NCBI RefSeq assembly: GCF_900258475.1
Contig: NZ_LT984887.1
Coordinates: 745,475 to 780,634, forward strand
DNA from: Anaerococcus sp. Marseille-P3915
Lineage (GTDB): Bacteria > Bacillota > Clostridia > Tissierellales > Peptoniphilaceae
Direction of reading: 5' to 3'
Length of the DNA stretch: 35,160 bases
Positions 7,224 through 32,459 of the stretch are shown here, one piece after another; positions within the stretch are counted from its first letter, which is position 1, and each line of letters begins with the position of its first letter. The notes below the pieces were generated by a model. It was not told the DNA's origin. It was given only the letters and a program-made list of their open reading frames with translations, and made no database searches. Both the position numbers and the translations under genes were made by a program.

Positions 7224-8024
7224 TCAAATGTTTAACCTATTTATTTTATAACTAGATTTTAACTTTACCTTATCTCTATTTGTTAGATACTCTTCCACAT
7301 CAAACAAATTTTTCTTATCATAGTCTTCCAATAACTTGTAATTCTTATGCTTTGTAATATCAAATTTATCAGATAGAAAAGGTCTTACTCCTCTTAGCTG
7401 GTATATACACTTACCACCATCCATTACAGTTATTTCATCTTGGCTCATAAGTTCTTTGCCAGTTTTTTGGTAATTTAGACCAAAGGATTTCTGGTTTGAT
7501 CTTGTTTCTGATGTGTTATATAGGTCTATGGTTTCTTTTCCTAAGGTTTCTGATAATTCTTTTACTGTCGTTTTTTCTTTTCCTCCTAAAAAGAGTGTAG
7601 AGTCGCAGTTACCAACTATTGTATCTGCATGGTCTTTGTAGATTGCTTTTAATTGAGATTGTGCTTGTAATATTATGCTTGCAGATATTTCTCTTGAACG
7701 AATTGTTGCAATCAATTTTTCAAATTTAGGAATTAAGCCTATATTTGCAAACTCATCAAGTAGACACCTAACATGAACTGGAAGTCTTCCACCATACACA
7801 TCATCTGCCTTATCACATAGTAGGTTAAATAATTGAGAATACATTATTGAGACTACAAAGTTAAAAGTATCGTCAGTATCTGATATTATTACGAACAAGG
7901 CAGTTTTTCTATCTCCAATTTTATCAAGCTCTAGTTCATCTTCACTCATTAGTTCTCTAAGCTCTCTTATATCAAAAGGTGCAAGTCTTGCTCCACAAGA
8001 TATTAGAATTGACTTGGCAGTTTT
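7224..8024 (-). pseudogene. VirD4/TraG-type coupling protein, C-terminal fragment
   Basis: About 266 residues forming the C-terminal half of a type IV coupling protein, the hexameric ATPase that delivers the relaxosome to the conjugation channel. The Walker B region is VHVRCLLDEFANIG, followed by IRSREISASIILQAQSQLKAIY, the classic T4CP stretch. The true frame starts at the element A junction (GKTAKSILISCGARLAP) rather than at the internal Met at 7949. Upstream of the junction the frame meets a TGA inside element A. The ATP-binding loop lies on the fragment at 31899-32459. Confidence 0.9.
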
Positions 8025-8027
8025 TCC

Positions 8028-8047
8028 TGTAACAACTTGTCAAGGAC
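8028..8047 (-). promoter_or_regulatory. Left end of element A with outward -35 box
   Basis: The minus strand reads GTCC-TTGACA (8043-8038) then ten bases to the core. The same TTGTCAAGGAC, at the same distance from the core, is at the left end of element B (23658-23668). In the integrated state no -10 hexamer follows at the right spacing. In the circle, the right end supplies TAGAAT after exactly 17 bases. Confidence 0.7.
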
Positions 8048-8050
8048 TTT

Positions 8051-8236
8051 CTAATCATTTTTATCTCCTTTTTGATGTTTTTTCATCTCCATTTCTCTAA
8101 GCATTATCCTTTTCAATTTATCTTGCATAGTTTCAGTCGCATTTTCATTAAAATGGACAATAACCTCATAAGTTACTTTTCCAATTTTTTTTATAGTCTT
8201 TGTTCCTGTATTATGTTCATTTTTATTTTCGTGCAT
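8051..8236 (-). CDS. tnpW: Transposon-encoded TnpW-like protein (element A)
   Basis: A 61-residue protein with the TnpW pattern IGKVTYEVIVHFNENATETMQDKLKRIMLREME, seen next to an end of Tn4451-type elements. Its role is unknown in the family. The start is the ATG at 8236, set by AGGAGGG eight bases upstream; the longer frame to 8266 lacks a ribosome-binding site. It is the last gene of element A, 24 bases from the core, and has a counterpart at the same place in element B. Confidence 0.75.
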   Translation of the reverse strand: MHENKNEHNTGTKTIKKIGKVTYEVIVHFNENATETMQDKLKRIMLREMEMKKHQKGDKND

Positions 8237-8347: not shown

Positions 8348-9355
8348 TTAAATTTTCAAATCCTTATTGTTCAGCATTCCGCCAAACATCGTATGATACA
8401 TATCCTTGGAAGATTCCTCTATCTTTGTAATACTTGATATTTTATTTCCTGCATCTTTTGATGAAGCTCCGCAAAGATAAAAGGCTTCACTGTCTGTTCC
8501 ATAGTCAATGGCAATATATCTATCGTGATACTTTTTACCTGCAATTTTCATCTTCAGATTAATATTAGGGTAATCTTTTCTAAAATCGTTAAGGATATTT
8601 TTTGTAAGCATATCCTTGTTCTTCACATTGTCGCTAAAGACTATAATTTCAACATTGTCTTTTGCAGCCCTTAATAATTCTAAGGTTTTCAAGCCTATAT
8701 AGTTGTCTATCACATAAATGCTTTTCTTTGCAGACTTATATATTTTGGTATAGGCAACATCTGCTTCAATCTTATCTCCGTTCATTAAAAGGAAATGCTT
8801 GTATGTGTCCGGATCTATAAAATTATCCATAACCTTTTTCAAATCTTCTTTTGTAGCCATTTGCGACTTTATTTCAGCTATATCCTTTGTATTTTGATTT
8901 GTCTGTACTGCTATTTGAACTAATTCTTTTGAACCGATAAAATCTTGGTTTTCAATGATAAAATCTTTCATTTGCTTAAATGTTCTAACTAAAGCTCTGC
9001 TTTGCTTAACAGCAAGTTCACCTCTTAATACAGTCATCAGCATATAAATACCTTGTTCTGTAAAGGCATAAGGATTGTATTTAATATTACTTCCTCTACC
9101 AGTCCCTCTGTTCAAGGTGAAATTTTTGCACCTTGAAAGTTCTACCATTTCTTCGTCCGTTAATTGGAACATGAAGTCTTCACCTTCAAATTTTTCTGCG
9201 TTGTTTTTCACCTGTCTATTAAAGTTTTTTGTTTCATAACCATATATTTCAGCTAAATCTGCATCAAGCATTACTTTTTGCCCACGAATAAGATATATTT
9301 TTTCTTGTATAGTTTTATCATCTACAATAACTATCTCTTTATTTTCTTCTGCCAT
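8348..9355 (-). CDS. ORF6N-domain protein with PLD-like C-terminal domain
   Basis: A 335-residue protein. Residues 10-100 are a classic ORF6N DNA-binding domain (IYLIRGQKVMLDADLAEIYGYETKNFNRQVKNN split over the domain; then FMFQLTDEE). A helical linker follows (about 120-190). The C-terminal third has KYHDRYIAID, an HxRx4D variant of the phospholipase D HKD motif, then FYLCGASSKDAGNK. ORF6N proteins are found in phages and mobile elements; the C-terminal half suggests a nuclease or effector activity, possibly defence-related (inference). The start is the ATG at 9355 with GGAGGTG upstream rather than the one at 9373. Confidence 0.75.
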   Translation of the reverse strand: MAEENKEIVIVDDKTIQEKIYLIRGQKVMLDADLAEIYGYETKNFNRQVKNNAEKFEGEDFMFQLTDEEMVELSRCKNFTLNRGTGRGSNIKYNPYAFTEQGIYMLMTVLRGELAVKQSRALVRTFKQMKDFIIENQDFIGSKELVQIAVQTNQNTKDIAEIKSQMATKEDLKKVMDNFIDPDTYKHFLLMNGDKIEADVAYTKIYKSAKKSIYVIDNYIGLKTLELLRAAKDNVEIIVFSDNVKNKDMLTKNILNDFRKDYPNINLKMKIAGKKYHDRYIAIDYGTDSEAFYLCGASSKDAGNKISSITKIEESSKDMYHTMFGGMLNNKDLKI

Positions 9356-9426
9356 GAAATGCACCTCCAACATTATCTAAATTCTTTTCCAATTCGCCAC
9401 GCACTGCGTAGCTTTTTGAATAAGTC

Positions 9427-9750
9427 TTATATTCTTTTATATTTTTCTACTCCGCCTTCAGCTTTTCCGATGTGTTCCACATTTTTTACAAGTCCCTTAT
9501 TTACATTTTCATAAAACCATCTGCCAATCAATGCCGGAGGTGTTGCGATTAACTCTCTCAAAACAAATTCTTTGTCCTTTGGTAAAGAGCTAATTTTGTT
9601 TAATAAGGTAGTATATAGGTCAGCATAGCTTGTATTTTCTTGTAAACTACTACACTTACAATATTCAGTAACGCTTGGGAAACCTCCCTCTATTGCTTTT
9701 TTAGTTAAAATGTCAAGTTCTTCATCGGTTACAGTAAATTGAATTCGCAT
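9427..9750 (-). CDS. Small DUF1413-like protein
   Basis: A 107-residue protein. Its N-terminus (MRIQFTVTDEELDILTKKAIEGGFPSV) looks like a ribbon-helix-helix-type DNA-binding segment. The C-terminal half (FVLRELIATPPALIGRWFYENVNKG, then GGVEKYKRI) resembles DUF1413, common in small mobile-element proteins of Firmicutes. It has a good AAGGAGAGG ribosome-binding site and lies 71 bases upstream of the ORF6N gene, likely the same transcript. Function is unknown; an antitoxin or regulator role is possible. The 173 bases upstream (9751-9923) hold no gene, only AT-rich promoter-like sequence. Confidence 0.55.
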   Translation of the reverse strand: MRIQFTVTDEELDILTKKAIEGGFPSVTEYCKCSSLQENTSYADLYTTLLNKISSLPKDKEFVLRELIATPPALIGRWFYENVNKGLVKNVEHIGKAEGGVEKYKRI

Positions 9751-9923: not shown

Positions 9924-10676
9924 CTACAAGTGTTCACCCTTGTCATAATCTTCAAAGGTATATACTTTTGATTTACTGTTTTCCTTTAATTTCCCTTTGT
10001 CCTGTTCATACCAATGAACTAAGGTCGCATAATGGTCTTTGTAGTTTCTTCCTGTACTTTGCATATAGGTTGACAGCTTCTCTATCATTTTATCCCTATG
10101 ACCTTGCATTTTATCCTTTAATTTTCCATATTCTTCATCAGTTAAGGAAACATTTTTATATTCTCCATAAAGGTTGGGGGATATTTTTTCTATCTCCCCC
10201 TCTTTTTCTAACTCTATATCTATCTCTTTATCTATCTCTATATCTCCGTTGCAGTTTTGTTGCAAAAGGTTGCAAGGTGTTGCACCAGTGTTGCATTGCA
10301 ACGCTTTTTGTCCTCTCGATTTTCTTGAACGCCTTGTAGAAGCTGTTTCTGAACCTATAAGACTTGGGATTTCTGTTAAAAAATACTCGTCATTTTCTGT
10401 GATTATCTCCATCAAGCCTTGTGCTATAATATAATTTACTGTAACCATTACATCATCTTCCGTTTCATCAATCGTTAAGGCAATCTCTTTGATAAAGTCT
10501 GTTTCTACTCCATCATAATACAGCTTCCCACTATCTTTTAAGCTAAGTAAAAGCAATTTAAGATAGATGATTGTATAGGTATCTCCTCCTGATATTTTTC
10601 TTAGCCTTTTGATTCTCTTATCTGTAAAAAAATCTTCTTTCAATTTTAACCAATAGTATCTTCTGTTGTCTGCCAT
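9924..10676 (-). CDS. Phage replisome organizer-type replication protein (element A)
   Basis: A 250-residue protein starting with the replisome-organizer N-terminal domain (YYWLKLKEDFFTDKRIKRLRKISGGDTYTIIYLKLLLLSL), a winged-helix DNA-binding fold related to DnaD-like initiators. A low-complexity linker (about 118-165) follows, with Cys-Asn and Glu-Ile repeats, whose DNA carries five GTTGCA iterons. The C-terminal domain (SLTDEEYGKLKDKM, LSTYMQSTGRNYKDHYATLVHWY) also occurs in the ICE RepA protein at 34485-35160. It starts two bases after the mobL-side gene and probably gives the excised circle some replication ability. Confidence 0.8.
   Translation of the reverse strand: MADNRRYYWLKLKEDFFTDKRIKRLRKISGGDTYTIIYLKLLLLSLKDSGKLYYDGVETDFIKEIALTIDETEDDVMVTVNYIIAQGLMEIITENDEYFLTEIPSLIGSETASTRRSRKSRGQKALQCNTGATPCNLLQQNCNGDIEIDKEIDIELEKEGEIEKISPNLYGEYKNVSLTDEEYGKLKDKMQGHRDKMIEKLSTYMQSTGRNYKDHYATLVHWYEQDKGKLKENSKSKVYTFEDYDKGEHL
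10248..10302. repeat. GTTGCA iteron array inside the element A replication gene
   Basis: GTTGCA occurs at 10248, 10259, 10269, 10279 and 10290, spaced 11, 10, 10 and 11 bases, about one helical turn each, so all sites face the same side of the DNA. An inverted copy, TGCAAC, ends the array at 10297-10302. It lies in the linker-coding part of the replication gene, as iterons do in lambda O and other initiator genes. It is a candidate replication origin. Confidence 0.7.
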
Positions 10677-10678
10677 TT

Positions 10679-12331
10679 TTATCTTTCCTCCCCTTTATTT
10701 TTATAATTTTCTTTAGCCTTTTCCTTGGCTTTTTGTTTGTACTGCCCCTTTATTTCCTCTTGCTCTTGGAATTTTTTCAGTTGTGCAATCACACTTGGTT
10801 TATCTCCTCTCTTAATTGCCTTGTCTATCTCTATGCTTAGGTCTATTCCATACTCTTCATTGACAATCTTTACTGCATATTTGATATGGTCTATCTGCTT
10901 AAATTCGTCTTGAACTTTAGCTTTATCTTTGGTTAGCTCTTGTATCTGATTTTCAAGGCTTGATATTTCTTTCTGCCAATCACTCGACTTTATAGCTGAT
11001 GTTCCAGTAAATTTTTCTATGATCTTTCTTGCTCTTTGGTATCTGTCTATTTCTTTTTTATGGGAATTGTAAAAACTGTCTTTGAATAGTGTCTTGCTTT
11101 TGTATTCCTGATAGACTTCTTTGTTTTCTCTGATAGCGTCTATGCAGCTTACACATTGATTTAGGTCTTTTATTCTTTGTGTTTTATCTTGAATATCACC
11201 ACTTATCTTTTTACTTTGCTTTGCCAGTTCAAAGACTTTTCCTTGTAGGTCTGCTATGGTTTGAAGATGATTATCTTTCAAATAGTAGATTGCTTTTACA
11301 AATCTCTTTAGGTCTGCATTTCCCTTTTTTATCTGTCCGTAGTAGGATAAATTTTTTGTTTTTTCTCCCTGTATCTCGTTGTAGATAGAAATATACTCAT
11401 AGAGGTTAAAGAGTTCCGCTTTGTTCTCCAGTTCATCTTTCTTGGTCTGTTTATACTCATCGTATTTTGCTTGCAGATTTCCAAGTAAAGAGTCTATCCA
11501 AGAGGTGATTTCTTTTATCTTGTTCTTGATGGCTTTTACTAAAGAGTTATGCTTTTTGATTTCTCTATTGATATTTCCTTTGTCGGTTTCGATTCCTTTT
11601 TTCTCTAAGGCACTGGCACTTGCTCCCATGTGAATGGTTGGGATTTCTTCTATCCCTTGTCTTTTGTAGGAACGATGATCTACTCTCTTTTCCTGATGAT
11701 TTTTTTCTAAATACTGATTACAAAGGCTTGCAAAATTCTTTCTCCATTTCTCTGCGTTGCCTTTATCGTTCCAGTCTGTCAGCTCTACTTTTCTTGTTTT
11801 GTAATTACCACTTTTTAGTTTTATCTTTTCTCCCTTTTCATCAAGAACATATTCTTTTTTGCTTTTTGCCAGCCACTCTCCTTTTTTATTAATCGGTCTA
11901 AGAGTAGTCATAATATGTGCATGGATATTGTTATTTTCTTCATCACTTTCATCATGAATTGCAAGGTCTGCTATCATTCCTTTTGATACAAAATGTTCTT
12001 GTATGAAGTCGGTAATGAGTTTCTTGTTTTCTTCAAAGGATAATTCTTTTGGTAGAGCAATGATAAAATTTCTTGCAAGCTGTGCATTGCTTGCTTTCTC
12101 ATTTAGTTCAACGCTGTTCCATAATGTAGTTCTATCTTTTAATGCTATGGGAACATTCTCCGGCAAGAAGATTTCTGAATGTAAAAGTCCCTTTTTATTA
12201 TGGTAATCGTGAACTTCTCCGTCCCATTCATTTTTGATTTTCTCACAAGAGATATATGCTGCACTTGCAACTGCCGATTTACTTTTTCCTCTGCTTATCA
12301 TAGAAATATTAAAGTGAAATGTTTCTGCCAC
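10679..12331 (-). CDS. MobA/MobL-family relaxase (MobQ), element A
   Basis: A 550-residue relaxase that would nick oriT and lead the strand into the recipient using a helper coupling protein. The N-terminal HUH relaxase domain (1-230) begins FHFNISMISRGKSKSAVASAAY with the catalytic Tyr near 26. The metal-binding motif is IHDESDEENNNIHAHIMTT. The C-terminal 300 residues are charged and coiled-coil-rich, with no TraI/TraA-type helicase or primase signature. The start has a GGAG-like site before ATG. The oriT lies about 150 bases upstream. It is nearly contiguous with the replication gene (two bases apart). Confidence 0.9.
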   Translation of the reverse strand: MAETFHFNISMISRGKSKSAVASAAYISCEKIKNEWDGEVHDYHNKKGLLHSEIFLPENVPIALKDRTTLWNSVELNEKASNAQLARNFIIALPKELSFEENKKLITDFIQEHFVSKGMIADLAIHDESDEENNNIHAHIMTTLRPINKKGEWLAKSKKEYVLDEKGEKIKLKSGNYKTRKVELTDWNDKGNAEKWRKNFASLCNQYLEKNHQEKRVDHRSYKRQGIEEIPTIHMGASASALEKKGIETDKGNINREIKKHNSLVKAIKNKIKEITSWIDSLLGNLQAKYDEYKQTKKDELENKAELFNLYEYISIYNEIQGEKTKNLSYYGQIKKGNADLKRFVKAIYYLKDNHLQTIADLQGKVFELAKQSKKISGDIQDKTQRIKDLNQCVSCIDAIRENKEVYQEYKSKTLFKDSFYNSHKKEIDRYQRARKIIEKFTGTSAIKSSDWQKEISSLENQIQELTKDKAKVQDEFKQIDHIKYAVKIVNEEYGIDLSIEIDKAIKRGDKPSVIAQLKKFQEQEEIKGQYKQKAKEKAKENYKNKGEER

Positions 12332-12464: not shown

Positions 12465-12548
12465 CCCTTAGTTTTTCTAAGGGCGCAATTATACACCCTA
12501 AAGGGTGCTTTGCGTTCTGCGAAGCTTTTTGCCCTTGCAGGGAGCTTC
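12465..12548 (-). other. oriT of element A (MobQ/IncQ type)
   Basis: On the minus strand a CACCCT-TT-AGGGTG hairpin (12507-12494) is followed by TATAATTGCGCCCTTAG, matching the IncQ/pIP501/pSK41 nick region TAAGTGCGCCCT at 11 of 12 positions. Further stems are CCCTTAG/CTAAGGG (12465-12483) and GAAGCT/AGCTTC (12521-12548) around CCCT-TGC-AGGG. The block is conserved, inverted, in element B. By analogy the nick is expected in GCG/CCC near 12482-12486. The rest of 12332-12575 has no gene. Confidence 0.75.
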
Positions 12549-12575: not shown

Positions 12576-12905
12576 CTACTCTATGTCTGTTTCATCTTCC
12601 ATATCTTTCCCATTTATCATTTCTTCATAGGCTTGTCTGTATTCTTCTGTGTGAGTAGAGATATTTAACAGTTTTTCTATCTCCTCATTGGTAAATATTA
12701 GAGGATTTTTAATGACCCTTTCTACTATCAATCCCCTTTGTATGAGCCTGTGATTTCTTCTTTTTCGTTCCTTTTCATTTGCCAGTTTTTCTAATTTTTT
12801 GCCTTGATTTTGTAATTGTTTCAGCTTTACATCGCACTTTTCTCTTTCTTCCTGAAGTTCAGAAATTTGTTCCTGTACTTCCTGTAATGTTTTTTCTTTC
12901 TTCAT
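12576..12905 (-). CDS. DUF3847-like mobilization accessory protein (element A)
   Basis: A 109-residue, highly charged coiled-coil protein (EVQEQISELQEEREKCDVKLKQLQNQ), then a basic stretch KERKRRNHRLIQRG and FTNEEIEKLLN. The same type lies beside the oriT in element B, so a MobC-like role in the relaxosome is likely. The start is the ATG at 12905 with GGAGGAATT upstream. A longer frame from a GTG at 12971 would start inside a terminator-like hairpin and lacks a ribosome-binding site. Confidence 0.7.
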   Translation of the reverse strand: MKKEKTLQEVQEQISELQEEREKCDVKLKQLQNQGKKLEKLANEKERKRRNHRLIQRGLIVERVIKNPLIFTNEEIEKLLNISTHTEEYRQAYEEMINGKDMEDETDIE

Positions 12906-12945
12906 TTTTAATTCCTCCGTTTTGGTATCTGCTTGTTTCCATAAA

Positions 12946-12981
12946 GAAAGGTTAAGCACCTTTTTTGACACTTAACCTTTC
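12946..12981 (-). terminator. Hairpin between the sigma-like and DUF3847 genes
   Basis: An 11-bp perfect stem (12946-12956 with 12971-12981) with a 14-base loop starts eight bases after the sigma-like stop codon. The T tract after it is weak, so it may be a partial terminator or attenuator. Confidence 0.5.
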
Positions 12982-12988: not shown

Positions 12989-13405
12989 TTAGATTTTATC
13001 TTCTAAAATCTTTCTCAGTTTTTCTAAAATCCTATCCCTCCTCCCACTGATTGCTTGATGTGTAACTTTCTCTCTTCTGCTGATTGACCTTAGACTTTCT
13101 TCTTTGTAGAAGATGGCTTCCATTAGTTCTCGTTCTTCTTTTGTAAGAGTATTTAATGCTTTATGAAGTTCTTCAATTCGCATTTTTACTTCTACAATTT
13201 TTTCTAAGTCTATCTTTTCATCTATGATGTTATCTACAAAGTGTCCATCATGATCCAGTGCCGAAAATGGTATTACATTATGCTTCCAATCTTTTCTTTG
13301 GAGATACTTTTCATGCTCTGTTATCTTCCAATAGGCTTTGTAGACTTCTTCACTTACAGGTACGGCTTTGCCTTTTACATAAAGGTAATATTCTTTCTTT
13401 GCCAC
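12989..13405 (-). CDS. Sigma-70 region 4-type regulator of mobile elements
   Basis: A 138-residue protein with a helix-turn-helix of sigma region 4 at the C-terminus (LNTLTKEERELMEAIFYKEESLRSISRREKVTHQAISGRRDRIL split around residues 80-130). The N-terminal half (EYYLYVKGKAVPVSEEVYKAYWKITEHEKYL) matches the sigma-like proteins that accompany relaxase and recombinase genes in Firmicutes elements. It lacks region 2, so it is a regulator rather than a full sigma factor. The start is GTG at 13405 with AAAGGAGG eight bases upstream. It may control transcription of the mobilization genes (inference). Confidence 0.75.
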   Translation of the reverse strand: MAKKEYYLYVKGKAVPVSEEVYKAYWKITEHEKYLQRKDWKHNVIPFSALDHDGHFVDNIIDEKIDLEKIVEVKMRIEELHKALNTLTKEERELMEAIFYKEESLRSISRREKVTHQAISGRRDRILEKLRKILEDKI

Positions 13406-13670: not shown

Positions 13671-14255
13671 TTAAATCACTCCTGCTTTTTCAAAATGCTT
13701 TTTGAGTATCTTTGTTGCAACGAATGCTCCTATGCAAGCAAGAACAAATGTTATCAAGGCAAAGCCTACTGCCCATGAAACTTTGAAATAAGATAATGCT
13801 TCATTTATTTGTGCTTCACTCATTTTCCATTTTGATGCTCTTTCCACAAAAGAAGCTGTTCCGAATAAAATCACAGGAATTACTGTCCCTAAAAAATCCG
13901 CTAATGCAAATATCCCATATCCAATAATCATTCGTCCCTTGCTCTCATAATTTCCTATAATCAAATCACATATAATTCCACCGATTACAGCAAAGACTGC
14001 ATGAGGCAAATGTCCTCCTGACAATGCAATTAAACCAAGAAGCGTTCCTGATATTGTAAATACGCCCTTCTTTTTAACTTTCAAAGCCATAAGGATATAA
14101 ACGGTAGCAGCTACCATAAAGCTAACTCCTGAAGCAATAAATCCTCCAATCACTGTTGTTGCCATAGCAAATGCAACCGCCATGTATATGACAATTCCAA
14201 TTGCATTAAAGATTCCGATTGTAATAAAATCACGACCATTTAATTTGTTTTTCAT
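13671..14255 (-). CDS. MptD/Trep_Strep-family ECF transporter S component
   Basis: A 194-residue membrane protein with five to six hydrophobic segments (about 10-35, 38-58, 65-90, 108-130, 155-185). It matches the MptD/Trep_Strep family of putative substrate-binding S components of energy-coupling factor importers. The basic C-terminal tail (KILKKHFEKAG) is usual. Substrate is unknown for the family. It overlaps no neighbour: the T component ends 10 bases upstream. Together with 14266-16477 it forms a complete ECF importer (S, T, fused A-A'). Confidence 0.8.
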   Translation of the reverse strand: MKNKLNGRDFITIGIFNAIGIVIYMAVAFAMATTVIGGFIASGVSFMVAATVYILMALKVKKKGVFTISGTLLGLIALSGGHLPHAVFAVIGGIICDLIIGNYESKGRMIIGYGIFALADFLGTVIPVILFGTASFVERASKWKMSEAQINEALSYFKVSWAVGFALITFVLACIGAFVATKILKKHFEKAGVI

Positions 14256-14265
14256 AAAAGTCCTC

Positions 14266-14970: not shown

Positions 14971-14971
14971 G

Positions 14972-16477: not shown

Positions 16478-16479
16478 GA

Positions 16480-23857: not shown

Positions 23858-23876
23858 AAGTTCTCCTTTCCATTTT

Positions 23877-23940
23877 TAGACAATAAAAAACAGCAAACCA
23901 TTTTTGATTTACTGTTACTGTGTTAGTTTTTATTAAATTG
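23877..23940 (-). terminator. Terminator upstream of tnpW-like gene, in a 60-base repeat
   Basis: Minus strand AACAGTAAA pairs with TTTGCTGTT (one G-U pair; 23916-23883), followed by six T. The whole 23877-23940 segment recurs in direct orientation at 29325-29388 with few differences. Confidence 0.7.
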
Positions 23941-23961
23941 CTTGATTTTCAAAATTGAAAT

Positions 23962-24330: not shown

Positions 24331-24340
24331 AGTAATCACC

Positions 24341-24592: not shown

Positions 24593-24629
24593 ATTATAAT
24601 TTTCTATTTATCTAATTTTATTATATCGT

Positions 24630-26135
24630 TTACATTATTGGAGCAAATAATCTTAAAATAGCTTGCCATAGTCCTTTAAATAAACCATTTTTTGCTTCTC
24701 TTTCATCTACTTTATGTGATTCTTTAAAGGAATCCTCAAAATCTTTTTTGATATCTTTTATTACATTTGTATCCTTCATATAAATACCACATTCAAAATG
24801 TAAATATAAACTTCTATAATCTAAGTTTATTGTTCCTACAGTTGCTATTTCATCATCGGATAAAAATACTTTGCTATGTACAAAACCATTCGTATAAGTA
24901 TAAATTTTTACTCCACCTTTAATTAATGTATAAAAATAAGAAGAGGTTAAATCATATACAATTCTTTTATCGGGTATTCCAGGAACAACAATTCTGACAT
25001 CTACTCCTCTTCTTGCAGCTAAGATTAAACTATTTATCATATCTGTATCAATAATTAAATAAGGTGTATAAATATAAACATACTTTTTCGCTTGATTGAT
25101 AATATTTAGATAAATATCTTCGCCGGTTATAACATCATCTAATGGACTTTCCCCATAAGGTACAACGAAAGCATTTTCCTTATACTTTTCAGTAAAATTA
25201 TATTTGTATTTATTATAATCATTATCTTCTTTTTTAAATGAATTCCACATTTCTAGAAACATAACAGTAAAATTCCAAACAGCTTCACCTTTTATCCTAA
25301 TTCCATTATCTTTCCATACTCCTAATTTACTATTTATATTTATATATTCATCTGAAATATTAATTCCACCAGAAAAAACAGTATGTCCATCAATTATCAT
25401 CATTTTTCTATGATCTCTATTATTCATAATAATACCTGCAAATGGCGATAATTTATTAAATTGCATACATTTTATTCCATATTTCCCCAGTAACTTTGGA
25501 TAATTACTAGGTAGCATAGCAAAAGAACCCATATCATCATATAATACTCTTACATCTAGTCCTGAATTTGCTTTTTCTTTTAATATATCTAAAATTCCTT
25601 GCCACATAGTACCATTATTAATAATGAAATATTCTATAAAAATAAATTTTTTGGCTTTTTTTAGTTCTTCTAACATAACAGGATAAACGTCATCACCAAG
25701 AGAATAATAGTTTATCTCATTGTTTTTCGTTACAGGAAATCCTGCAAATTCACTTATATATTTTAATTGTCCTAAATTTTTAGTATCGATTTCTTTTTTT
25801 ATAAATTCATCTTGTATTAAGTATTTTTGACCATTTTCTATATTTTCATTAATATTCTTTAAAACTTTACTTCTTTTCATATTATTACTAAGTATGATAT
25901 ATAGAAGTGTTCCAATTAATGGAAAAAGCATAATCAGTAATATCCATATTAAATCGCTACTTAATCTTTTACTATACTTGATAATCATTAAAACAATTAT
26001 AATACTAAGTAAACCATAAACTACATGAATAATACTTATAAATTCTCCAAATTTTAAATATATAAATAATGTTAATAGAATTTGTATTAATAAACCTATT
26101 GCTACAACAATTCCTCTTTTTACTGCCATCCACAT
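24630..26135 (-). CDS. cls: Cardiolipin synthase (phospholipase D type)
   Basis: A 501-residue membrane enzyme joining two phosphatidylglycerol molecules into cardiolipin. Two to three N-terminal membrane helices (about 5-85) are followed by two PLD domains. The first HKD motif is DHRKMMIID in NNRDHRKMMIIDGHTVFSGG; the second is HSKVFLSD in FVHSKVFLSDDEIATVGTINLD. Both are complete. The start at 26135 is chosen because GAGGAG precedes it by seven bases, whereas the ATG five codons upstream has none. It lies about 65 bases after the bile salt hydrolase and probably shares its transcript. It is unusual as mobile-element cargo. Confidence 0.9.
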   Translation of the reverse strand: MWMAVKRGIVVAIGLLIQILLTLFIYLKFGEFISIIHVVYGLLSIIIVLMIIKYSKRLSSDLIWILLIMLFPLIGTLLYIILSNNMKRSKVLKNINENIENGQKYLIQDEFIKKEIDTKNLGQLKYISEFAGFPVTKNNEINYYSLGDDVYPVMLEELKKAKKFIFIEYFIINNGTMWQGILDILKEKANSGLDVRVLYDDMGSFAMLPSNYPKLLGKYGIKCMQFNKLSPFAGIIMNNRDHRKMMIIDGHTVFSGGINISDEYININSKLGVWKDNGIRIKGEAVWNFTVMFLEMWNSFKKEDNDYNKYKYNFTEKYKENAFVVPYGESPLDDVITGEDIYLNIINQAKKYVYIYTPYLIIDTDMINSLILAARRGVDVRIVVPGIPDKRIVYDLTSSYFYTLIKGGVKIYTYTNGFVHSKVFLSDDEIATVGTINLDYRSLYLHFECGIYMKDTNVIKDIKKDFEDSFKESHKVDEREAKNGLFKGLWQAILRLFAPIM

Positions 26136-26199
26136 ATTTTTTCTCCTCATACTAATTCATTTTTATATGTAATACTTTTATCTTCTTTATAGATAAACA

Positions 26200-27174
26200 T
26201 TAATTTTGAGTTCTTATCTGTTCTTCCTTTATCAAAGGATAACGAATAAGTACATTACTATCTAGATTTTCTTTGTGCATATCAACTGCTGTTATTTGAT
26301 GATTATCATATGTTGTATAATAATAAATTCCCTTATTTACATTACAGCAAGATGTATAAATTGTTATTTCAAATTTATCATCACCTAAATCACAGCATCC
26401 TCTTTGTTGATCAACGCTACCTAAAATGTGAAAAAATTGACTAACACTTGATTTTTCATCTTCTTTAGAAAAAGAATTTAATTTAGTATACGCTACTCTT
26501 ATGAATCTTGATTGCGATGATAAATCACCTGGTAGACCTATTGCTCCCATTCCTCTACTATATAAACTTAGATCTAATTCTTTACTAAATTTATTCTCTG
26601 GAGATTTAGGTGATAAATACATATAATTATTTAAGGCAAACATTTGCTTATCAAAAGATGGATTATTAGTTAATACCCCTACTGGATTATCATATATTTT
26701 TATTCCATCAATAACAGACTCTACAGTTATTGATTGTGTGCTATCGGAAATAATCCAATGTAAGCTAGCTAATGGTAATTTATCACTAAATGGAGTATTT
26801 AACACATTCATTTTTTCAATCAAATTTCTAGCTTCATTTACATTTGAACATTGGCTTAAAATCCATGGTATCAGTTCAAATTGAGCAACATTATCTTTTC
26901 CTTCCTGTTTTTCTTTATAATGAGCATTTCCAACAAAATTTAAACCTGCTATTGCTAACCCTTTTTCGTTTATTGCATCGTAATATAATGGATAATCTTC
27001 AGTAACAAATGCCATTCCAATTATCGCATAATGACTCTTAATGTCATCTACTTCTCTAAATTTAAATTCAAAGTTTCTTGGTGTTATTGTTACTTCATCT
27101 CCATATGAAAATTCATAATCCAATGTTCTTCCAAAATAAAAATCTTTCGTTTTATAAGTTGCTGCTGTACACAT
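26200..27174 (-). CDS. bsh: Conjugated bile salt hydrolase (choloylglycine hydrolase)
   Basis: A 324-residue Ntn hydrolase that cleaves glycine or taurine from conjugated bile acids in the cytosol. Cys2, exposed after Met removal, is the nucleophile (MCTAATYK). Arg16 and Asp19 are in FGRTLDYE, Asn79 in GLAIAGLNFVGN, Asn170/171 in VLTNNPSF and Arg223 in LSSQSRFIRV, matching the family's catalytic set. GMGAIGLPGDLSS is the usual substrate loop, so it looks like a true hydrolase rather than a penicillin acylase. The start has AAGGGAAAG before ATG. Carriage on a mobilizable element would spread bile tolerance among gut bacteria. Confidence 0.9.
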   Translation of the reverse strand: MCTAATYKTKDFYFGRTLDYEFSYGDEVTITPRNFEFKFREVDDIKSHYAIIGMAFVTEDYPLYYDAINEKGLAIAGLNFVGNAHYKEKQEGKDNVAQFELIPWILSQCSNVNEARNLIEKMNVLNTPFSDKLPLASLHWIISDSTQSITVESVIDGIKIYDNPVGVLTNNPSFDKQMFALNNYMYLSPKSPENKFSKELDLSLYSRGMGAIGLPGDLSSQSRFIRVAYTKLNSFSKEDEKSSVSQFFHILGSVDQQRGCCDLGDDKFEITIYTSCCNVNKGIYYYTTYDNHQITAVDMHKENLDSNVLIRYPLIKEEQIRTQN

Positions 27175-27243
27175 ATTCTTTCCCTTCTTTCTAATACTAT
27201 TTCTTATCTTTTATATAACTCTCTTTAAAATTACTATTTAGTG

Positions 27244-27271
27244 ATTATATTTAATTATACCATTTTTTCAC
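27244..27271 (-). promoter_or_regulatory. Likely promoter of the bsh-cls operon
   Basis: Minus strand GTGAAA (27271-27266), 16 bases, then TATAAT (27249-27244), about 70 bases before the bsh start. A second TATAAT lies a turn upstream. The -35 is a poor match, so confidence is modest. Confidence 0.4.
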
Positions 27272-27277
27272 TTAGTT

Positions 27278-28738
27278 TTATAGGTCTAACTCATTCCTCT
27301 TTACCTGTGATAGTTGTTTTTCTTGTTCCTGTAACTGCTCTATACAGGTCTTAACTTTTTCAGCCTGTTCTACTTCTTCTCGTATTTCTAATATTTTACT
27401 ATATAGGCTCTTTTTATCTTTCTTCAAAGTGGTAAGTTCCGATTTCCATTTGGATATATTTAAGGTCTTACTTTCCCCTAAATGCTCTTTGAGATGTTTC
27501 CTTGCACTTTCAAATAGAATAAGCTTCGCCGTATGCTCATTATAAAAATCTTCCTGTTTTATTTTCTTTAACTTTGCATAGGCTTTGTAGATGTCCTTGT
27601 ACTTCAAATATTTTTCTGACTGGTCGATGAGTTGTGTTTTTTCATCAATCTTTTTCTCGGTATCTTTTAAGGCTCTTGTGGTCTTGTAATTCTTATCTCT
27701 TAAAGTAACTATACTTTCTTTCAGTTCAGATAAGGAAATAATGTTTTTCTCTTTTAAGAATTGATAGCTTTCGATGTATTTTTCTAAATCTGTATTATGG
27801 TTATCTGCATTTTTACGGATAAGATTTTTAAAAACGGATAGCAAATTTTCTTTGGATGGGAGGGTAGATTTGAGATTATCAGTTTCTGCCTTTTCTTCTT
27901 TTCCTATTCCTCTTATCCAATTTAGTAAGGCTTTTATTCTTCTTGCAATCTCTTTTAATATCTTATTCTGATGTTTGATTTCTCGGTTGATATTTCCCCT
28001 GTCGGTATTTATGCCTTTCTTTTCCATTTGGGTGGCTGATACGCCTAAATGAATGGTCGGTATTTGTTCTATGCCCTGTCTTTCATAGGAACGGTGATCC
28101 ACTTTTTCCTGTATGCTATTTTCTTCAAGATATTTATTTGTAATATCTGCCCATGCTTTTCGCCAATGCTCTGCTTTGTCTTGTTCGTTCCAATCTACTG
28201 CATTTATTTTCTTTGTTTTGTAGTTGCCATTTTTAAGTTTTACTTTCTCTCCGTTTTCATCAAGGATATATTCCTTTTTTGATTTTGCTCCCCATGTTGT
28301 ATCTTCGTTTAGCGGTCGCATAGTTAATAGAATATGTGCGTGTGGGTTTCCGTCATTTTTATCATGTAGGGCAATATCGGCACACATACCAACTTTCACA
28401 AAATTTTCTTTTACATATTCCCTTACAAGTTCTATCTGTTTTTCCCTGTCTAATTCTTTGGGTAAAGCAATTTCGATTTCTCTTGCAAGCTGTGAGTTTT
28501 TACTTTTTTCTATTTTCTCAACACTGTTCCATAATACAGAACGGTTTGAAAATTCTTCAGGTGCATTTTGCGGTAATAGAATTTCGGTATAGGCTATTCC
28601 GCCTTTTCTTGTAAAGTCATGGACTATTCCGTCATATTCGTTTTTTATCTTTTCGCCACTACGATAGGCGGAAGCTGCTACTGCACTTTTGCCTTTTCCT
28701 CTTGAAATAATCTTTATACTAAGATGATATATCGCCAT
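27278..28738 (-). CDS. MobA/MobL-family relaxase (MobQ), element B
   Basis: A 486-residue relaxase. The HUH domain begins AIYHLSIKIISRGKGKSAVA with the catalytic Tyr in ASAYRSGEKI (about residue 25), and the metal site is HDKNDGNPHAHILLTMRPL. It resembles the element A relaxase over the first 230 residues and diverges in the coiled-coil C-terminal part. GGAGG precedes the ATG by about eight bases. A terminator upstream (28793-28827) separates it from the DUF3847 gene. It depends on a coupling protein supplied by a helper, since the local one is broken. Confidence 0.9.
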   Translation of the reverse strand: MAIYHLSIKIISRGKGKSAVAASAYRSGEKIKNEYDGIVHDFTRKGGIAYTEILLPQNAPEEFSNRSVLWNSVEKIEKSKNSQLAREIEIALPKELDREKQIELVREYVKENFVKVGMCADIALHDKNDGNPHAHILLTMRPLNEDTTWGAKSKKEYILDENGEKVKLKNGNYKTKKINAVDWNEQDKAEHWRKAWADITNKYLEENSIQEKVDHRSYERQGIEQIPTIHLGVSATQMEKKGINTDRGNINREIKHQNKILKEIARRIKALLNWIRGIGKEEKAETDNLKSTLPSKENLLSVFKNLIRKNADNHNTDLEKYIESYQFLKEKNIISLSELKESIVTLRDKNYKTTRALKDTEKKIDEKTQLIDQSEKYLKYKDIYKAYAKLKKIKQEDFYNEHTAKLILFESARKHLKEHLGESKTLNISKWKSELTTLKKDKKSLYSKILEIREEVEQAEKVKTCIEQLQEQEKQLSQVKRNELDL

Positions 28739-28792
28739 AAGAAAAAACCTCCTCTCTTTTTTAATGTGGGGACGATGGCGATGATAAAGACT

Positions 28793-28827
28793 TACTAAAA
28801 AAAATCGGATTGCTTTTTATCCGATTT
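28793..28827 (-). terminator. Strong terminator between oriT and mobL of element B
   Basis: AAATCGGAT/ATCCGATTT, nine perfect pairs with an eight-base loop, followed by eight T on the minus strand. It would end transcription coming from the DUF3847 gene before mobL. Confidence 0.75.
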
Positions 28828-28851
28828 CTTTTGGGAAGTACACAAGGGGTA

Positions 28852-28977
28852 GGAAATTTATTTCCGTAGGGGAGTGTAGCTCCCCTGTATCAGCGTTAGC
28901 TGATATGCTCTCTGCAAGAGCCTTCGGAGAACGCACACACCCTTTAGGGTGTATAAGTGCGCCCTTGTAAACAAGGG
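28852..28977 (+). other. oriT of element B (MobQ/IncQ type)
   Basis: Six stems follow each other: GGAAAT/ATTTCC, AGGGGAG/CTCCCCT, TATCAGC/GCTGATA, GCTCT/AGAGC, ACACCC/GGGTGT and CCCTTGT/ACAAGGG. Right after the ACACCC/GGGTGT stem is TAAGTGCGCCCT (28954-28965), identical to the nick region of IncQ, pIP501 and pSK41-type oriTs. By analogy the nick is between 28961 and 28962 on the plus strand. The core is conserved with element A, but in the opposite orientation to mobL. Confidence 0.82.
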
Positions 28978-28978
28978 A

Positions 28979-29299
28979 CTATTCCTCTATGTCCGTTTCT
29001 TCCTCTTGGTTTTCTGTGTTTTGATTTTGATTTTCTTTTCGCTTTTCTATGATTTTTAAGATTTTTTGATTGACTTCTTCTTTGATGTTTGGGAATGTGA
29101 TTAGCTGATAAAATTCGTCTTTGGTAAAATCCTTGCTTTCAATAAAGATACTTTCAAAGACTGCTCCTTTTTCATAAATCCGTCTATCCCTTTTCTTTCG
29201 TTCTTCCTGTTTCTGTTGACTGATGAGCTTTTTTCTTTTGTTTTGTAACTGCTTGATTTCTTCTTCTGTCATTAAAATTTTTTCATCTATGTTTTTCAT
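28979..29299 (-). CDS. DUF3847-like mobilization accessory protein (element B)
   Basis: A 106-residue charged protein: N-terminal coiled coil (MTEEEIKQLQNKRKKLISQQ), basic patch QEERKKRDRRIYEKGAVFES, then FTKDEFYQLITF and an acidic tail EEETDIEE like the DETDIE tail of the element A homologue. The stop codon directly abuts the oriT stem CCCTTGT/ACAAGGG. A role in the relaxosome, like MobC, is inferred from the paired locations. A terminator (29331-29364) separates it from the methyltransferase gene upstream. Confidence 0.7.
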   Translation of the reverse strand: MKNIDEKILMTEEEIKQLQNKRKKLISQQKQEERKKRDRRIYEKGAVFESIFIESKDFTKDEFYQLITFPNIKEEVNQKILKIIEKRKENQNQNTENQEEETDIEE

Positions 29300-29324
29300 T
29301 TCTGTTTTCCTTTCTTCTGTTTTT

Positions 29325-29388
29325 GGACAAAGAAAAAACAGTAAACCATTTTTGATTTACTGTTAGTGTGTTATTTTTTATTAAATTG
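29325..29388 (-). terminator. Terminator after the methyltransferase gene, second copy of 60-base repeat
   Basis: Minus strand AACAGTAAA pairs with TTTACTGTT (29364-29337), followed by six T. It is the direct repeat of 23877-23940 and starts four bases after the methyltransferase stop codon. Confidence 0.72.
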
Positions 29389-29392
29389 TTAG

Positions 29393-30112
29393 TTACTTCT
29401 TTTTCTTAAAAACCACGACTCCAAAAAATGGACAAATAGCTACCGTTTTTACTAACTCCATATTTGCTTTTTCTGACCAATGTTTCAACTCTTTCATAGA
29501 ATAGAACCAATTATCCTTGGGACTATTTTCTCTCATATCTTCAACCGTATAAACTTCATTTTCTTTAAGGTATGGTTCTATATAATTTTTATATATTTCT
29601 TCAGGCGTGGTTTCTTTTAATAAAAATCTATATACCTTATTAAATAATTCGGTATCCTTTTCTGCGTCAAATAAAAGCATGGTATCGCACAAATAAAAAT
29701 AACCATCCGTTGTAAGTATCTCTGAAATATTTTCTAACGACTTTTCTTTATAATCCCATGGCACTTGATGGAATGCTAACATACTAATAACTTTATTAAC
29801 GCTTTGATTGCAATTTAATGCTTCAAAACTTCCTTGAATATATTTTACATTTCCATTACTACGATTTATAGCTTCCTGTAAATTATCTGCATTTGGCTCA
29901 ATACCAATAACTTCATCTGAAAAATTACTACATACCTTTGAAAAATTTCCCCAACCACAACCTATATCCATTACCTTATCGCTTTTTTTCAATTCAGCTA
30001 ATTTAAGCATAAGATTAACTAACTCATCTTTACTTTCGTAGGTTTGTCTCCCATCGGGACTAATAAGTTTGTTAATGTATTTATCTAATAATGCTGTCCA
30101 ATTTTCAGCGAT
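29393..30112 (-). CDS. Class I SAM-dependent methyltransferase, start codon unclear
   Basis: Motif I is VMDIGCGWGNFSK, motif II VIGIEPNADNL, and motif III-IV INKVISMLAFHQVPWD-like (VNKVISMLAFHQVPWD). The target is not recognisable. The first ATG in frame is at 30010, with no ribosome-binding site and right at the fold. The frame is open 34 more codons (AENWTALLDKYINKLISPDG) to an ATC at 30112, which sits six bases after a strong GGAGG, where an ATG would be expected. I give the longer coordinates; the ATC may be a mutated ATG, in which case translation is poor or the gene is dying. Confidence 0.75.
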   Translation of the reverse strand: MAENWTALLDKYINKLISPDGRQTYESKDELVNLMLKLAELKKSDKVMDIGCGWGNFSKVCSNFSDEVIGIEPNADNLQEAINRSNGNVKYIQGSFEALNCNQSVNKVISMLAFHQVPWDYKEKSLENISEILTTDGYFYLCDTMLLFDAEKDTELFNKVYRFLLKETTPEEIYKNYIEPYLKENEVYTVEDMRENSPKDNWFYSMKELKHWSEKANMELVKTVAICPFFGVVVFKKKK

Positions 30113-30167
30113 ATTCTACCTCCTATTTATATTTTTATTGTCTAAATTACTAAATATTATAGCATTT

Positions 30168-31838
30168 TTAAGGTGCTTTTTCCATATCAGCTTTCTGTGG
30201 AATTTGACAGTTCCCTATAAAGTTAAAATACACATCGACCTGTTGTTTTCTCTCCTTGCCTTTTCTTCCTCCTGTTGCTTCATGGACTACAACTTTTTCT
30301 ATATACTCATTTATCATTGGTACTGTCAGTTCTTCAATATCGGTATATTTTTCTATCATCTTTAAGAATTTATCAGTATCAACTTTTCTCTGATGATAAC
30401 TTTCTATTTCATCTTCAAAATACTGTATTTGATTTTCTAAGTCTTGTTGCTCCGTATCATAGGTATTAAATAATCTATCAAAGTGTTTTACAGGAATTTT
30501 TCCAAGTGCGTGGTCTTCATATAGCTTTGTAATAAGGGTTGTTAATTCTGCATTTCTTGATGACAGTTTCTCTAACTTTTCTTTATCCCCTTGATACTTT
30601 TCTTCTCTTTTTTCATCGGACAATTTGTTCATCACTTTTAGAAATTCTTGTTTATCTTCTTTGGCAAAGTCTGTGATTTCTTTAATTGATTTCAAGAGAA
30701 TTTCATTCACTGTCTTTACTTTGATGTAGTGCATACTGCAAGTGCCTTTTCTGTGTCTGTAATGTTGGCACACAAAACAATAATCACAATCGTATTTCTT
30801 TTCTTTATGTTCTGCCGGCTCTCTGTAACTTAACTTTCCTCCACAATCAGAACAGATTAAAAGTCCTGTAAATGGGTGGGAGGTTGTACCATACTTTGGG
30901 CTTCTTCTTACTGTTTTTCTTAACCTTTGAGCATTATTCCATGTTTCTTCGTCAATAATCGCTTCATGGGTGTTTTTGAAGATAATGAGTTCATCTGCTT
31001 TCGCCTTTCTGCGTTTCTTGGTTTTGTAGTCTACACTAATTGTCTTTCCCAATACAGTATGTCCCATATATTCTTGCTTTTCTAAGATATAGCTTACTGT
31101 GGTTGGTGTCCAAAAATATGGGTCTTCTATTCCTCTTTTCTTGGAGCTGTGGTTATTTTCAGGATAGTGTATTTCTGCATAGGCTGATGGAATAAGGACT
31201 TTATCTTTGGTTAGTATATCTGCTATCTGAGTTACTCCATATCCCTCTATTACAAGCCTATAAATGCGTTTTACGACCTTTGAACTCTCTTTATCGACAA
31301 GTAGCTCCTGTTTGTTCTTAGGGTTTCTATAATAGCCGTATGGAACGCTGGGTGATACTCTTTTACCCTCTTCCATTCTTGCTCTAAAGATGGATTGTAT
31401 TTTTCTTGAGGTATCTCTTGCATACCATTCATTCATAATATTTAGAAATGGGGTAAAGTCGCTTTCTGCTTGTTTTTCGCTATCTATTCCGTTATTGATG
31501 GCAATAAATCTTACTCCCTTTTCTTTGAAAAGTATTTCGGTATAAAAACCTACTTTGAGGTAATCTCTGCCAAACCTGCTCATATCTTTTACTATCACAG
31601 TAGATACTTTGTTTTCTTCTACTGCTTTTATCATCTTTTGAAATCCCTCTCTATCAAAGGTTGTTCCGCTTACTCCATCATCGGTATAGTGATAGATATT
31701 TACAAAACCGTTTCTTTTCGCATAGCTTTCAAGCAGCTGTTTTTGATTGGTGATGGAATTGCTTTCTCCTTGCATTTCATCATCACGACTTAAACGCTCA
31801 TAAAGTGCCGTTTGTCCTGTTCTTTTCGTATTTGACAT
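30168..31838 (-). CDS. Large serine recombinase, TnpX/TndX-like (element B)
   Basis: A 556-residue recombinase for element B. Catalytic Ser is in LYERLSRDDEMQGESNS, followed by VKDMSRFGRDYLKVGFYTE. The recombinase domain is at about 165-290, and the zinc ribbon has CSDCG, then CDYCFVCQHYRHRKGTC (about 325-370). A coiled coil and the C-terminal VPMINEYIEKVVVHE motif follow. AAAGGAGG lies seven bases before the ATG at 31838, and the right core is 58 bases upstream. It is clearly related to the element A enzyme but different enough for another target (DPKG-coding site). Confidence 0.93.
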   Translation of the reverse strand: MSNTKRTGQTALYERLSRDDEMQGESNSITNQKQLLESYAKRNGFVNIYHYTDDGVSGTTFDREGFQKMIKAVEENKVSTVIVKDMSRFGRDYLKVGFYTEILFKEKGVRFIAINNGIDSEKQAESDFTPFLNIMNEWYARDTSRKIQSIFRARMEEGKRVSPSVPYGYYRNPKNKQELLVDKESSKVVKRIYRLVIEGYGVTQIADILTKDKVLIPSAYAEIHYPENNHSSKKRGIEDPYFWTPTTVSYILEKQEYMGHTVLGKTISVDYKTKKRRKAKADELIIFKNTHEAIIDEETWNNAQRLRKTVRRSPKYGTTSHPFTGLLICSDCGGKLSYREPAEHKEKKYDCDYCFVCQHYRHRKGTCSMHYIKVKTVNEILLKSIKEITDFAKEDKQEFLKVMNKLSDEKREEKYQGDKEKLEKLSSRNAELTTLITKLYEDHALGKIPVKHFDRLFNTYDTEQQDLENQIQYFEDEIESYHQRKVDTDKFLKMIEKYTDIEELTVPMINEYIEKVVVHEATGGRKGKERKQQVDVYFNFIGNCQIPQKADMEKAP

Positions 31839-31898
31839 GAGAATTACCTCCTTTCCAAGTTTTTATTATTTTCTCTGTCCCTAAGAGGTTAATCCTTT

Positions 31899-32459
31899 AG
31901 GGTCTGTTACTACATAAGAAGAGTGCATTTGCATTAGATTTGGCTTTACATAAAATCTCGTCTTACCTGATCCAGAACCACCTATTACTAATACATTTTT
32001 ATTTCTAGCGTATTTAGGGTTTTTAGGTCTTGAGTTCATTGTTAGTCTTTCGGTATTAGTTATAAGAACATTGTTTTCAAACTTAGGGTCAATGTATGGA
32101 GCAATATCCTTGATTTCTCCCCATCTTGCAGATCCATATTCCTTGCCTTGCCTATATTTCTTTTTGTTTTTACCTTTGCTATATACTATTAGCTTAACAA
32201 TGGCAGCAACTGAAATACCTACTAATAAGTCCCTTGGATTAATACTTGGTATATAGGATAAAGTTCCTATATCAGAAATTCCCACCATTATTCTATCAAT
32301 AATATCTCCTCCTACATAAGAATTGATGTGCTTAGAAAAAATATTTCCAATGTAGAAGAATGATAGATAGGGAATGTTTGATAATATAAATTTCTTTGGG
32401 TTGTCTATTTTAATTAGGTTTTTAATATCAGAAAGAATGGCTTCTAATATCTTATTCAT
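31899..32459 (-). pseudogene. VirD4/TraG-type coupling protein, N-terminal fragment
   Basis: About 189 residues with two membrane segments (about 25-45 and 75-92), KYRQGKEYGSARWGEIKDI, Walker A GGSGSGKT at 160-167 and VVTDPKG at 183-189. Element B then adds LTS and a stop. The start is the ATG at 32459, whose first bases overlap the antirepressor stop (ATGAATAA), with GAAGG upstream. Together with 23217-23645 and 7224-8024 it gives a protein of about 598 residues. Confidence 0.9.

What the first reader, a model, noticed from the sequence alone, without database searches (positions are those of the whole stretch)
7224..32459. One conjugation gene split into three by two related mobilizable elements, with frame restored on excision
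Fragments at 32459-31899, 23645-23217 and 8024-7224 join as DPKG+TLVLECG and KLAAG+KTAKSIL without loss of frame, giving about 598 codons. The target sites are conserved T4CP motifs. Mobilizable elements need a helper T4CP, so insertion in one disables a competing ICE while excision would repair it exactly. Nested insertions of mobilizable transposons in a larger ICE are known from clostridia (for example C. difficile Tn6103), but two independent hits in the same gene are striking.
Basis: partly seen in the sequence, partly recalled or inferred. Interest (0 to 1): 0.85.

Follow-up and report, generated by a model that had tools for sequence, protein, structure and literature searches.

The report
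Conjugation gene split by two hitchhikers
A gene needed for DNA transfer between bacteria is cut into three pieces by two mobile elements that each aim at their own fixed spot in it, a habit already described in streptococci and C. difficile and often seen in relatives of this bacterium.

Summary
A VirD4-type coupling-protein gene (NF045973, CD1115 family) lies in three collinear in-frame pieces, separated by a 15.2-kb and an 8.2-kb integrative mobilizable element (IME), each with a large serine recombinase (LSR), MobA/L relaxase, DUF3847 and TnpW. An uninterrupted homologue in the same genome aligns with the pieces end to end.

The arrangement is known: IMEs in two sites of traG (virD4) in streptococci, and Tn6104 in C. 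difficile. Beyond the finding: three LSR lineages keep three different sites. Of the loci fetched, lineage A was at the KLAAG site in 30 of 30, B at DPKG in 15 of 18, C at GSARW in 14 of 14. Three genomes hold all three in order C-B-A, Peptoniphilus gorbachii on one contig. LSR and target divergence are uncorrelated (r=0.004); split genes look as constrained as intact ones.

'Disabling a competing ICE' is weak here: no T4SS gene was found beside this remnant, which ends at an IS110, and the only VirB4 found in the genome lies in another ICE whose virD4 is uninterrupted. Excision was not tested. Resistance genes lie 2.5-8.5 kb outside the window, so pieces were not joined.

The parts
31894..32459 (-). 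virD4/traG piece 1, ends at the DPKG site
   Evidence: NF045973 positions 1-62; maps to an uninterrupted homologue up to the core
23217..23648 (-). virD4/traG piece 2, from the DPKG site to the KLAAG site
   Evidence: NF045973 positions 66-207
7224..8025 (-). virD4/traG piece 3, from the KLAAG site to the stop
   Evidence: NF045973 positions 234-442, TraG-D_C
23649..31893 (.). element B, about 8.2 kb IME in the DPKG site; shared core AAAGG at both ends
   Evidence: sequence at both ends; relatives with empty site
30168..31838 (-). LSR of lineage B (Resolvase, Recombinase, zinc ribbon, DUF4368)
   Evidence: Pfam
29393..30010 (-). cargo: class I methyltransferase, no resistance model over cut-off
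28979..29299 (-). DUF3847 protein of element B
   Evidence: Pfam
28938..28971 (.). oriT-like motif of element B, shared inverted with 12474-12507 (nic resemblance recalled)
   Evidence: repeat I1, motif scan
27278..28738 (-). MobA/MobL relaxase of element B
   Evidence: Pfam E 7.6e-101
26200..27174 (-). cargo: bile salt hydrolase
   Evidence: NF038245 501 bits, cut-off 350
24630..26150 (-). cargo: cardiolipin synthase
   Evidence: TIGR04265 350 bits, cut-off 290
23962..24339 (-). cargo: SnoaL-like protein
   Evidence: Pfam, at the cut-off
23693..23857 (-). TnpW at the right end of element B
   Evidence: Pfam PF14202
8028..23214 (.). element A, about 15.2 kb IME in the KLAAG site; shared core GG at both ends
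   Evidence: sequence at both ends; relatives with empty site
21279..23117 (-). LSR of lineage A
   Evidence: Pfam
20631..21203 (-). cargo: TetR-family regulator
   Evidence: Pfam
20062..20580 (-). cargo: DUF1706 protein
   Evidence: Pfam
16480..19939 (-). cargo: pair of ABC exporter half-transporters (18182-19939, 16480-18189); no resistance model over cut-off among the best 25 shown for each
13671..16504 (-). cargo: ECF-type importer genes (ATPase 14972-16504, T component 14266-14970, S component 13671-14255)
12989..13405 (-). sigma-70 region 4 protein of element A
   Evidence: Pfam
12576..12971 (-). DUF3847 protein of element A
   Evidence: Pfam
12474..12507 (.). oriT-like motif of element A (partner of 28938-28971)
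   Evidence: repeat I1
10679..12331 (-). MobA/MobL relaxase of element A
   Evidence: Pfam E 9.4e-92
9924..10676 (-). replisome organiser (Phage_rep_org_N) of element A
   Evidence: Pfam
9427..9750 (-). DUF1413 protein of element A, weak NikA-like match below cut-off
   Evidence: Pfam
8348..9373 (-). ORF6N-domain protein of element A
   Evidence: Pfam
8051..8236 (-). TnpW at the right end of element A
   Evidence: Pfam PF14202
32452..35159 (-). ICE genes upstream of virD4: Bro-N/KilAC antirepressor (32452-33186), DUF3801 (33357-33668), DnaC-like (33661-34488), RepA_N (34485-35159)
   Evidence: Pfam, NCBIfam
5522..6872 (+). IS110-family element at which the ICE remnant ends
   Evidence: Pfam; its end sequence recurs at several places in the genome

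Best explanation
The virD4 (traG) gene of a truncated ICE in an Anaerococcus genome carries two integrative mobilizable elements of the TnpX/TnpW plus MobA/L kind. Each element's large serine recombinase puts it at its own fixed site inside the gene, at a core of a few bases within a codon, with no target sequence lost. Lineage A uses the KLAAG site, lineage B the DPKG site, and a third lineage C the GSARW site upstream. The sites can be filled independently, so one gene can hold one, two or three elements. Shown: anatomy, exact junctions, natural empty sites, lineage-to-site pairing, and repeated movement of elements between diverged ICEs. Inferred: that the elements still excise, that they use an ICE's conjugation machinery in trans, and that coupling-gene function returns when they leave.
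For: Domain content. Pieces align end to end with an uninterrupted homologue in the same genome. LSR-first test, which does not look for the target: lineage A at the KLAAG site in 30 of 30 fetched loci (47 A genes listed), B at DPKG in 15 of 18 (22 listed), C at GSARW in 14 of 14 (17 listed). All 16 clusters with more than one LSR keep the order C, B, A in gene direction. Four-fold-site distances of LSR A and its flanking virD4 are uncorrelated over 406 pairs of 29 loci (r=0.004; 857 of 2000 permutations as high); 18 pairs have LSR distance at most 0.03 with virD4 distance over 0.25, 6 pairs the reverse, 1 pair is close in both; pairs share loci and are not independent. Lineage A is also at this site in Veillonella, Eggerthia, Streptococcus, Mogibacterium and others.
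Against: Excision, circles and mobilization were not observed. Lineage B sits elsewhere in 3 of 18 loci. Of 24 named lineage-A loci, 18 show the KLAAG site, 4 lie elsewhere (L194, L205, L209, L214), L204 has only 39 bases before the element and these do not read KLAA, and L212 was unclear. One search also lists some partial matches that end at other places (for example aa 539, 411 or 282), not followed up. In S. suis an intact IME in another ICE gene did not excise under the conditions tested (PMC7168690).
Confidence: 0.88

Rival explanations
1. Reversible docking: elements leave when conjugation is induced, so the interrupted gene is a latent working gene and the ICE is not harmed (the 'harmless hitchhiker' view of Coluzzi 2017 and Guedon 2017).
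For: Split pieces are as constrained as intact genes: pN/pS 0.036 versus 0.041 (piece 3; 30 and 40 distinct sequences), 0.027 versus 0.025 (piece 2; 25 and 37), 0.043 versus 0.035 (part of piece 1; 25 and 38); 0, 0 and 1 stops in the split sets. VirB4 is present within about 28 kb of 19 of 20 split genes examined. No target bases are lost at the cores.
Against: Recent independent insertion alone would give the same ratios; only 1 of 406 pairs looks like a shared older insertion. In this strain no VirB4 was found for the window's ICE, so the idea can hardly apply to it.
Confidence: 0.45
2. Parking in wreckage: the elements persist in decayed ICE remnants, where interrupting virD4 costs nothing, and use another resident ICE as helper.
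For: In this genome the only VirB4 found belongs to an ICE with an uninterrupted virD4. The window's remnant ends at IS110 sequence, and so does contig C3, which holds the only other copy of piece 3 and probably the end of the second interrupted gene (link inferred). [quoted passage not shown]
Against: Elsewhere in the family the occupied virD4 genes examined mostly sit in ICEs with T4SS genes, 19 of 20.
Confidence: 0.4
3. Sabotage: insertion is selected because it stops a rival ICE from transferring.
For: virD4 is essential for transfer, and transfer of Tn6103, which carries three such elements, was not demonstrated (PMC3158075).
Against: Elements without a coupling protein need one from a helper; occupied genes are not visibly decayed; recombinase specificity alone explains the sites.
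Confidence: 0.1
4. Assembly artefact joining unrelated pieces.
For: The genome is in 8 contigs, and a small contig (C3) ends in IS110.
Against: The same junctions recur in dozens of separate assemblies of many genera.
Confidence: 0.02

Closest known systems
IME_Sco1050_traG_site1 and site2 in Streptococcus constellatus C1050 (Coluzzi 2017; Guedon 2017 Table 1)
   Same: Serine-recombinase IMEs at two different sites of one virD4/traG gene, both listed with a replisome organiser; 12 of 16 streptococcal serine-integrase IMEs carry a MobQ (PF03389) relaxase
   Different: Other host group and cargo; their exact sites were not compared with ours because the sequence was not at hand; a third site and three elements in one gene are seen here
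Tn6104 and Tn6105 in Tn6103 of Clostridioides difficile R20291 (Brouwer 2011)
   Same: Tn6104 has a TnpX-related LSR, mobA/mobL, an ABC transporter and sigma-like proteins; two of the three Tn6103 insertions are in one ORF; Guedon 2017 lists Tn6104 as inside traG
   Different: GC 48-50%; 2-bp repeat; position within the gene not compared here
Tn4451/Tn4453 family
   Same: TnpX-type LSR; TnpW (its link to this family is recalled)
   Different: Tn4451 is listed with numerous GA sites; these keep mainly to one site each
IMEs in SNF2, PPI and traG genes of S. suis ICEs (PMC7168690)
   Same: Serine-recombinase IMEs fixed in conserved ICE genes, including Tn1549-type traG
   Different: Experiments there were on SNF2 and PPI elements, whose excision was not detected

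Membership tests
Integrative mobilizable element (IME) | Own site-specific recombinase at one end | tested here: met
   LSR 30168-31838 and 21279-23117
Integrative mobilizable element (IME) | Own relaxase but no VirB4 | tested here: met
   MobA/L in both; no VirB4, PrgI or TrbL match in the window
Integrative mobilizable element (IME) | Excises and is mobilized by a helper | not testable with these tools
   sequence only
Tn4451/TnpX-type mobilizable transposon | LSR with Resolvase, Recombinase, zinc ribbon and DUF4368 domains plus TnpW | tested here: met
   that this set marks the family is recalled
Tn4451/TnpX-type mobilizable transposon | GA core, many sites | tested here: not met
   core GG (A) or within AAAGG (B); one main site per lineage with some exceptions
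traG-site IMEs of Guedon 2017 | Inserted inside a VirD4-type coupling gene of an ICE | tested here: met
   NF045973 pieces
traG-site IMEs of Guedon 2017 | Same two sites as in S. constellatus C1050 | not tested
   that sequence was not in reach
Complete ICE of the Tn5252 or Tn1549 kind | T4SS genes (VirB4, TrbL, PrgI) with the coupling gene | tested here: not met
   none found beside the virD4 gene of the window; the sole VirB4 match of the genome is in another ICE

The most novel reading that the evidence does not exclude
virD4 is a multi-slot docking gene: at least three mutually independent recombinase lineages each own one slot in it, elements come and go fast relative to the ICE, and the gene stays under selection because occupation is temporary and tied to conjugation, comparable to developmentally excised elements in sporulation genes.
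Probability: 0.3. Interest if true: 0.75.

Novelty: new member of a known kind. Interest (0 to 1): 0.42.

Why it matters
Whether IMEs inside conjugation genes are harmless passengers or harm their ICE is treated as open in the 2017 IME review. The survey gives material to answer it: three lineages, three sites, near-identical occupied and empty genes in many anaerobes, three genomes with all three sites filled, and a first measure that occupied genes are not visibly decaying. The specificity also makes these recombinases candidates for orthogonal integration tools.

Tried and rejected
Rejected: chance joining (same breaks in many genomes). Rejected: that half of the occupied genes sit in ICEs without a T4SS. 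A 10-kb look gave 11 of 20 split against 16 of 20 intact, but longer stretches showed cargo and a further Mob-plus-LSR element between virD4 and TrbL, and the counts became 19 of 20 and 18 of 20 (all 9 split misses were extended, the gene in G124 stayed unresolved; of 4 intact misses 3 were extended, G120 ran to a contig end, G052 was not extended). Weak: target sites as the most conserved DNA of the gene (84th, 57th and 83rd percentile in 26 non-redundant of 42 distinct intact genes; random triples as high in 7.7%). Unresolved: whether recent insertion alone explains the low pN/pS. A split by T4SS status gave 0.080 (12 loci) and 0.073 (11 loci) from few pairs, but used the status that one search corrected, so it is not meaningful.

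In one search one alignment (aa 1-248) ran on into the element; one search showed the break at GSAR. No structure prediction was run.

Literature: PMC5704250 passages and section 13; PMC5357655 passages and sections 14 and 25; PMC3158075 passages; PMC7168690 passages and section 12; all others only as search listings. None of the passages or listings seen reports three IMEs in one traG gene; that is a statement about those searches only.
Full report
1. What is there. The window is C1:745475-780634 of a 2.25-Mb genome in 8 contigs. Its genus also holds Anaerococcus vaginalis ATCC 51170: handle G035, same genus, has a contig of the same length (1,884,085 bases) and a lineage-A match at the same place. 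A VirD4-type coupling gene (NF045973) lies in three pieces on the minus strand: 32459-31894, 23648-23217 and 8025-7224. Element B (about 8.2 kb) holds an LSR, MobA/L, DUF3847, TnpW, a methyltransferase, a bile salt hydrolase, a cardiolipin synthase and a SnoaL-like protein; element A (about 15.2 kb) holds an LSR, MobA/L, DUF3847, TnpW, a replisome organiser, a TetR regulator, two ABC exporters, an ECF importer and a sigma-like protein. Of ten proteins of the elements scanned, none passed a resistance model's cut-off in the rows shown (25 best at most). The LSRs share 45% and the relaxases 41% identity.

2. Each piece, searched alone, aligns to the uninterrupted homologue of the same genome (L013) so that the pieces follow each other without gap. 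Stretches shared by both ends: AAAGG at the first site, GG at the second, TGGG at a third. In the right-end junctions printed for the three sites, TTGACAA ends 9 nt before the shared core, probably part of the recombinase binding site (inference).

3. A second gene of the same kind in the same genome. A second virD4 gene (L010, C1:164,627 onward) is also cut twice: by element C at the GSARW site and by an 89%-identical relative of LSR A at the KLAAG site, while its DPKG site is free. Its last piece is probably the one on contig C3 (inferred). A third copy (L013) is free at all three sites.

4. The family picture. Of 130 genomes of the family, 88 have a virD4 match (E at most 1e-10). Among the loci compared the breaks fall at three places, apart from short C-terminal matches, one alignment that ran on into an element, and matches cut by contig ends; one search lists some further partial matches with other ends that were not followed up. 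Starting from the recombinase instead of the target: lineage A at the KLAAG site in 30 of 30 fetched loci, B at DPKG in 15 of 18, C at GSARW in 14 of 14 (47, 22 and 17 genes listed). The three B exceptions lie at other sites that also read AAAAGG at the junction. One A relative outside virD4 (L118/L209, Peptoniphilus mikwangii) is in a genome with no virD4 match. Of 66 clusters, 50 hold one LSR, 7 are B-A, 5 C-A, 3 C-B-A and 1 B-B-A.

5. Movement. LSR-A and virD4 four-fold-site distances are unrelated in 29 loci, 406 pairs (r=0.004, 857 of 2000 permutations as high). LSRs identical at such sites sit in virD4 genes that differ at 30-85% of them, and nearly identical virD4 genes hold LSRs that differ at 18-39%. 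Lineage A with more than 85% identity also occurs at the same site in Veillonella seminalis, Eggerthia catenaformis, Streptococcus sp. LYSM12, Criibacterium, Mogibacterium, Oribacterium and [Eubacterium] infirmum; among 18 loci with LSRs of 53-64% identity the upstream virD4 piece ends at aa 332 in 11 and at 346 in one; of 38 more distant LSRs, 4 lie at the DPKG site and 34 showed no virD4 piece in the up to 3 kb of flank held.

6. Are occupied genes dead? pN/pS of split and intact genes is alike: 0.036 and 0.041 (piece 3), 0.027 and 0.025 (piece 2), 0.043 and 0.035 (part of piece 1), with 0, 0 and 1 stops in the split sets of 30, 25 and 25 distinct sequences. VirB4 was found near 19 of 20 split and 18 of 20 intact genes after the stretches were lengthened. 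This fits temporary occupation, but recent independent insertion would look the same.

7. The window's own ICE. After piece 3 only about 350 bp of the sequence that follows this gene in relatives remain before an IS110 (the match covers 7300-6866); no T4SS gene was found on that side, and the one VirB4 match of the genome is at C1:869,858, in the ICE of L013. So here the elements seem to sit in remnants, with another ICE as possible helper. On the other side, outside the window, lie erm(A)-type, aph(3')-IIIa, sat4 and ant(6) genes, all over curated cut-offs. For that reason pieces were not joined and functional tests are referred.

8. Known or new. Two IMEs at two traG sites, Tn6104 in traG, and excision on induction are in print. 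Not seen in the passages read: a third site, three elements in one gene, one lineage per site, and the selection and independence measures above. I file the locus as a new member of a known kind.

Noticed in passing
L008 3108-9164 (C1:783108-789164, right of the window): erm(A)-type, aph(3')-IIIa, sat4 and ant(6) genes over curated cut-offs, with two serine recombinase genes nearby in L008 and three more LSR matches in L009.
   Followed up: partly
L142-L146 (genome G128): Two virD4 loci seem to have exchanged their middle piece: one has a window-type middle inside an L013-type gene, the other the reverse; recombination between the elements or misassembly.
   Followed up: partly
L314, L316-L326: A further LSR (33-37% to LSR B), with a MobA/L gene in most of these stretches, lies just before TrbL in these ICEs, and in G124 (L322) TrbL itself is split by another Mob-plus-LSR stretch.
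   Followed up: partly
window 26200-27174: Bile salt hydrolase as cargo of an IME; LSR, relaxase, bile salt hydrolase and cardiolipin synthase with 100% protein identity recur in G128 (L142). Three papers hold the two search terms; only the listing was seen.
   Followed up: partly
window 12474-12507 and 28938-28971: Shared palindrome plus a stretch resembling a MobQ-type nic site before both relaxase genes (resemblance recalled).
   Followed up: partly
window 1-137 and 6736-6872: Two 99% identical IS110 ends bracket a chromosome-like segment (AI-2E transporter, HemN in two frames, 3HCDH).
   Followed up: no
G051:C1:620038-633694: Cluster B-B-A whose first lineage-B LSR match is partial.
   Followed up: no
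window 24500-24580: Inverted repeat with 36-bp arms 9 bp apart (83% complementary) in element B between the cardiolipin synthase and SnoaL-like genes.
   Followed up: no
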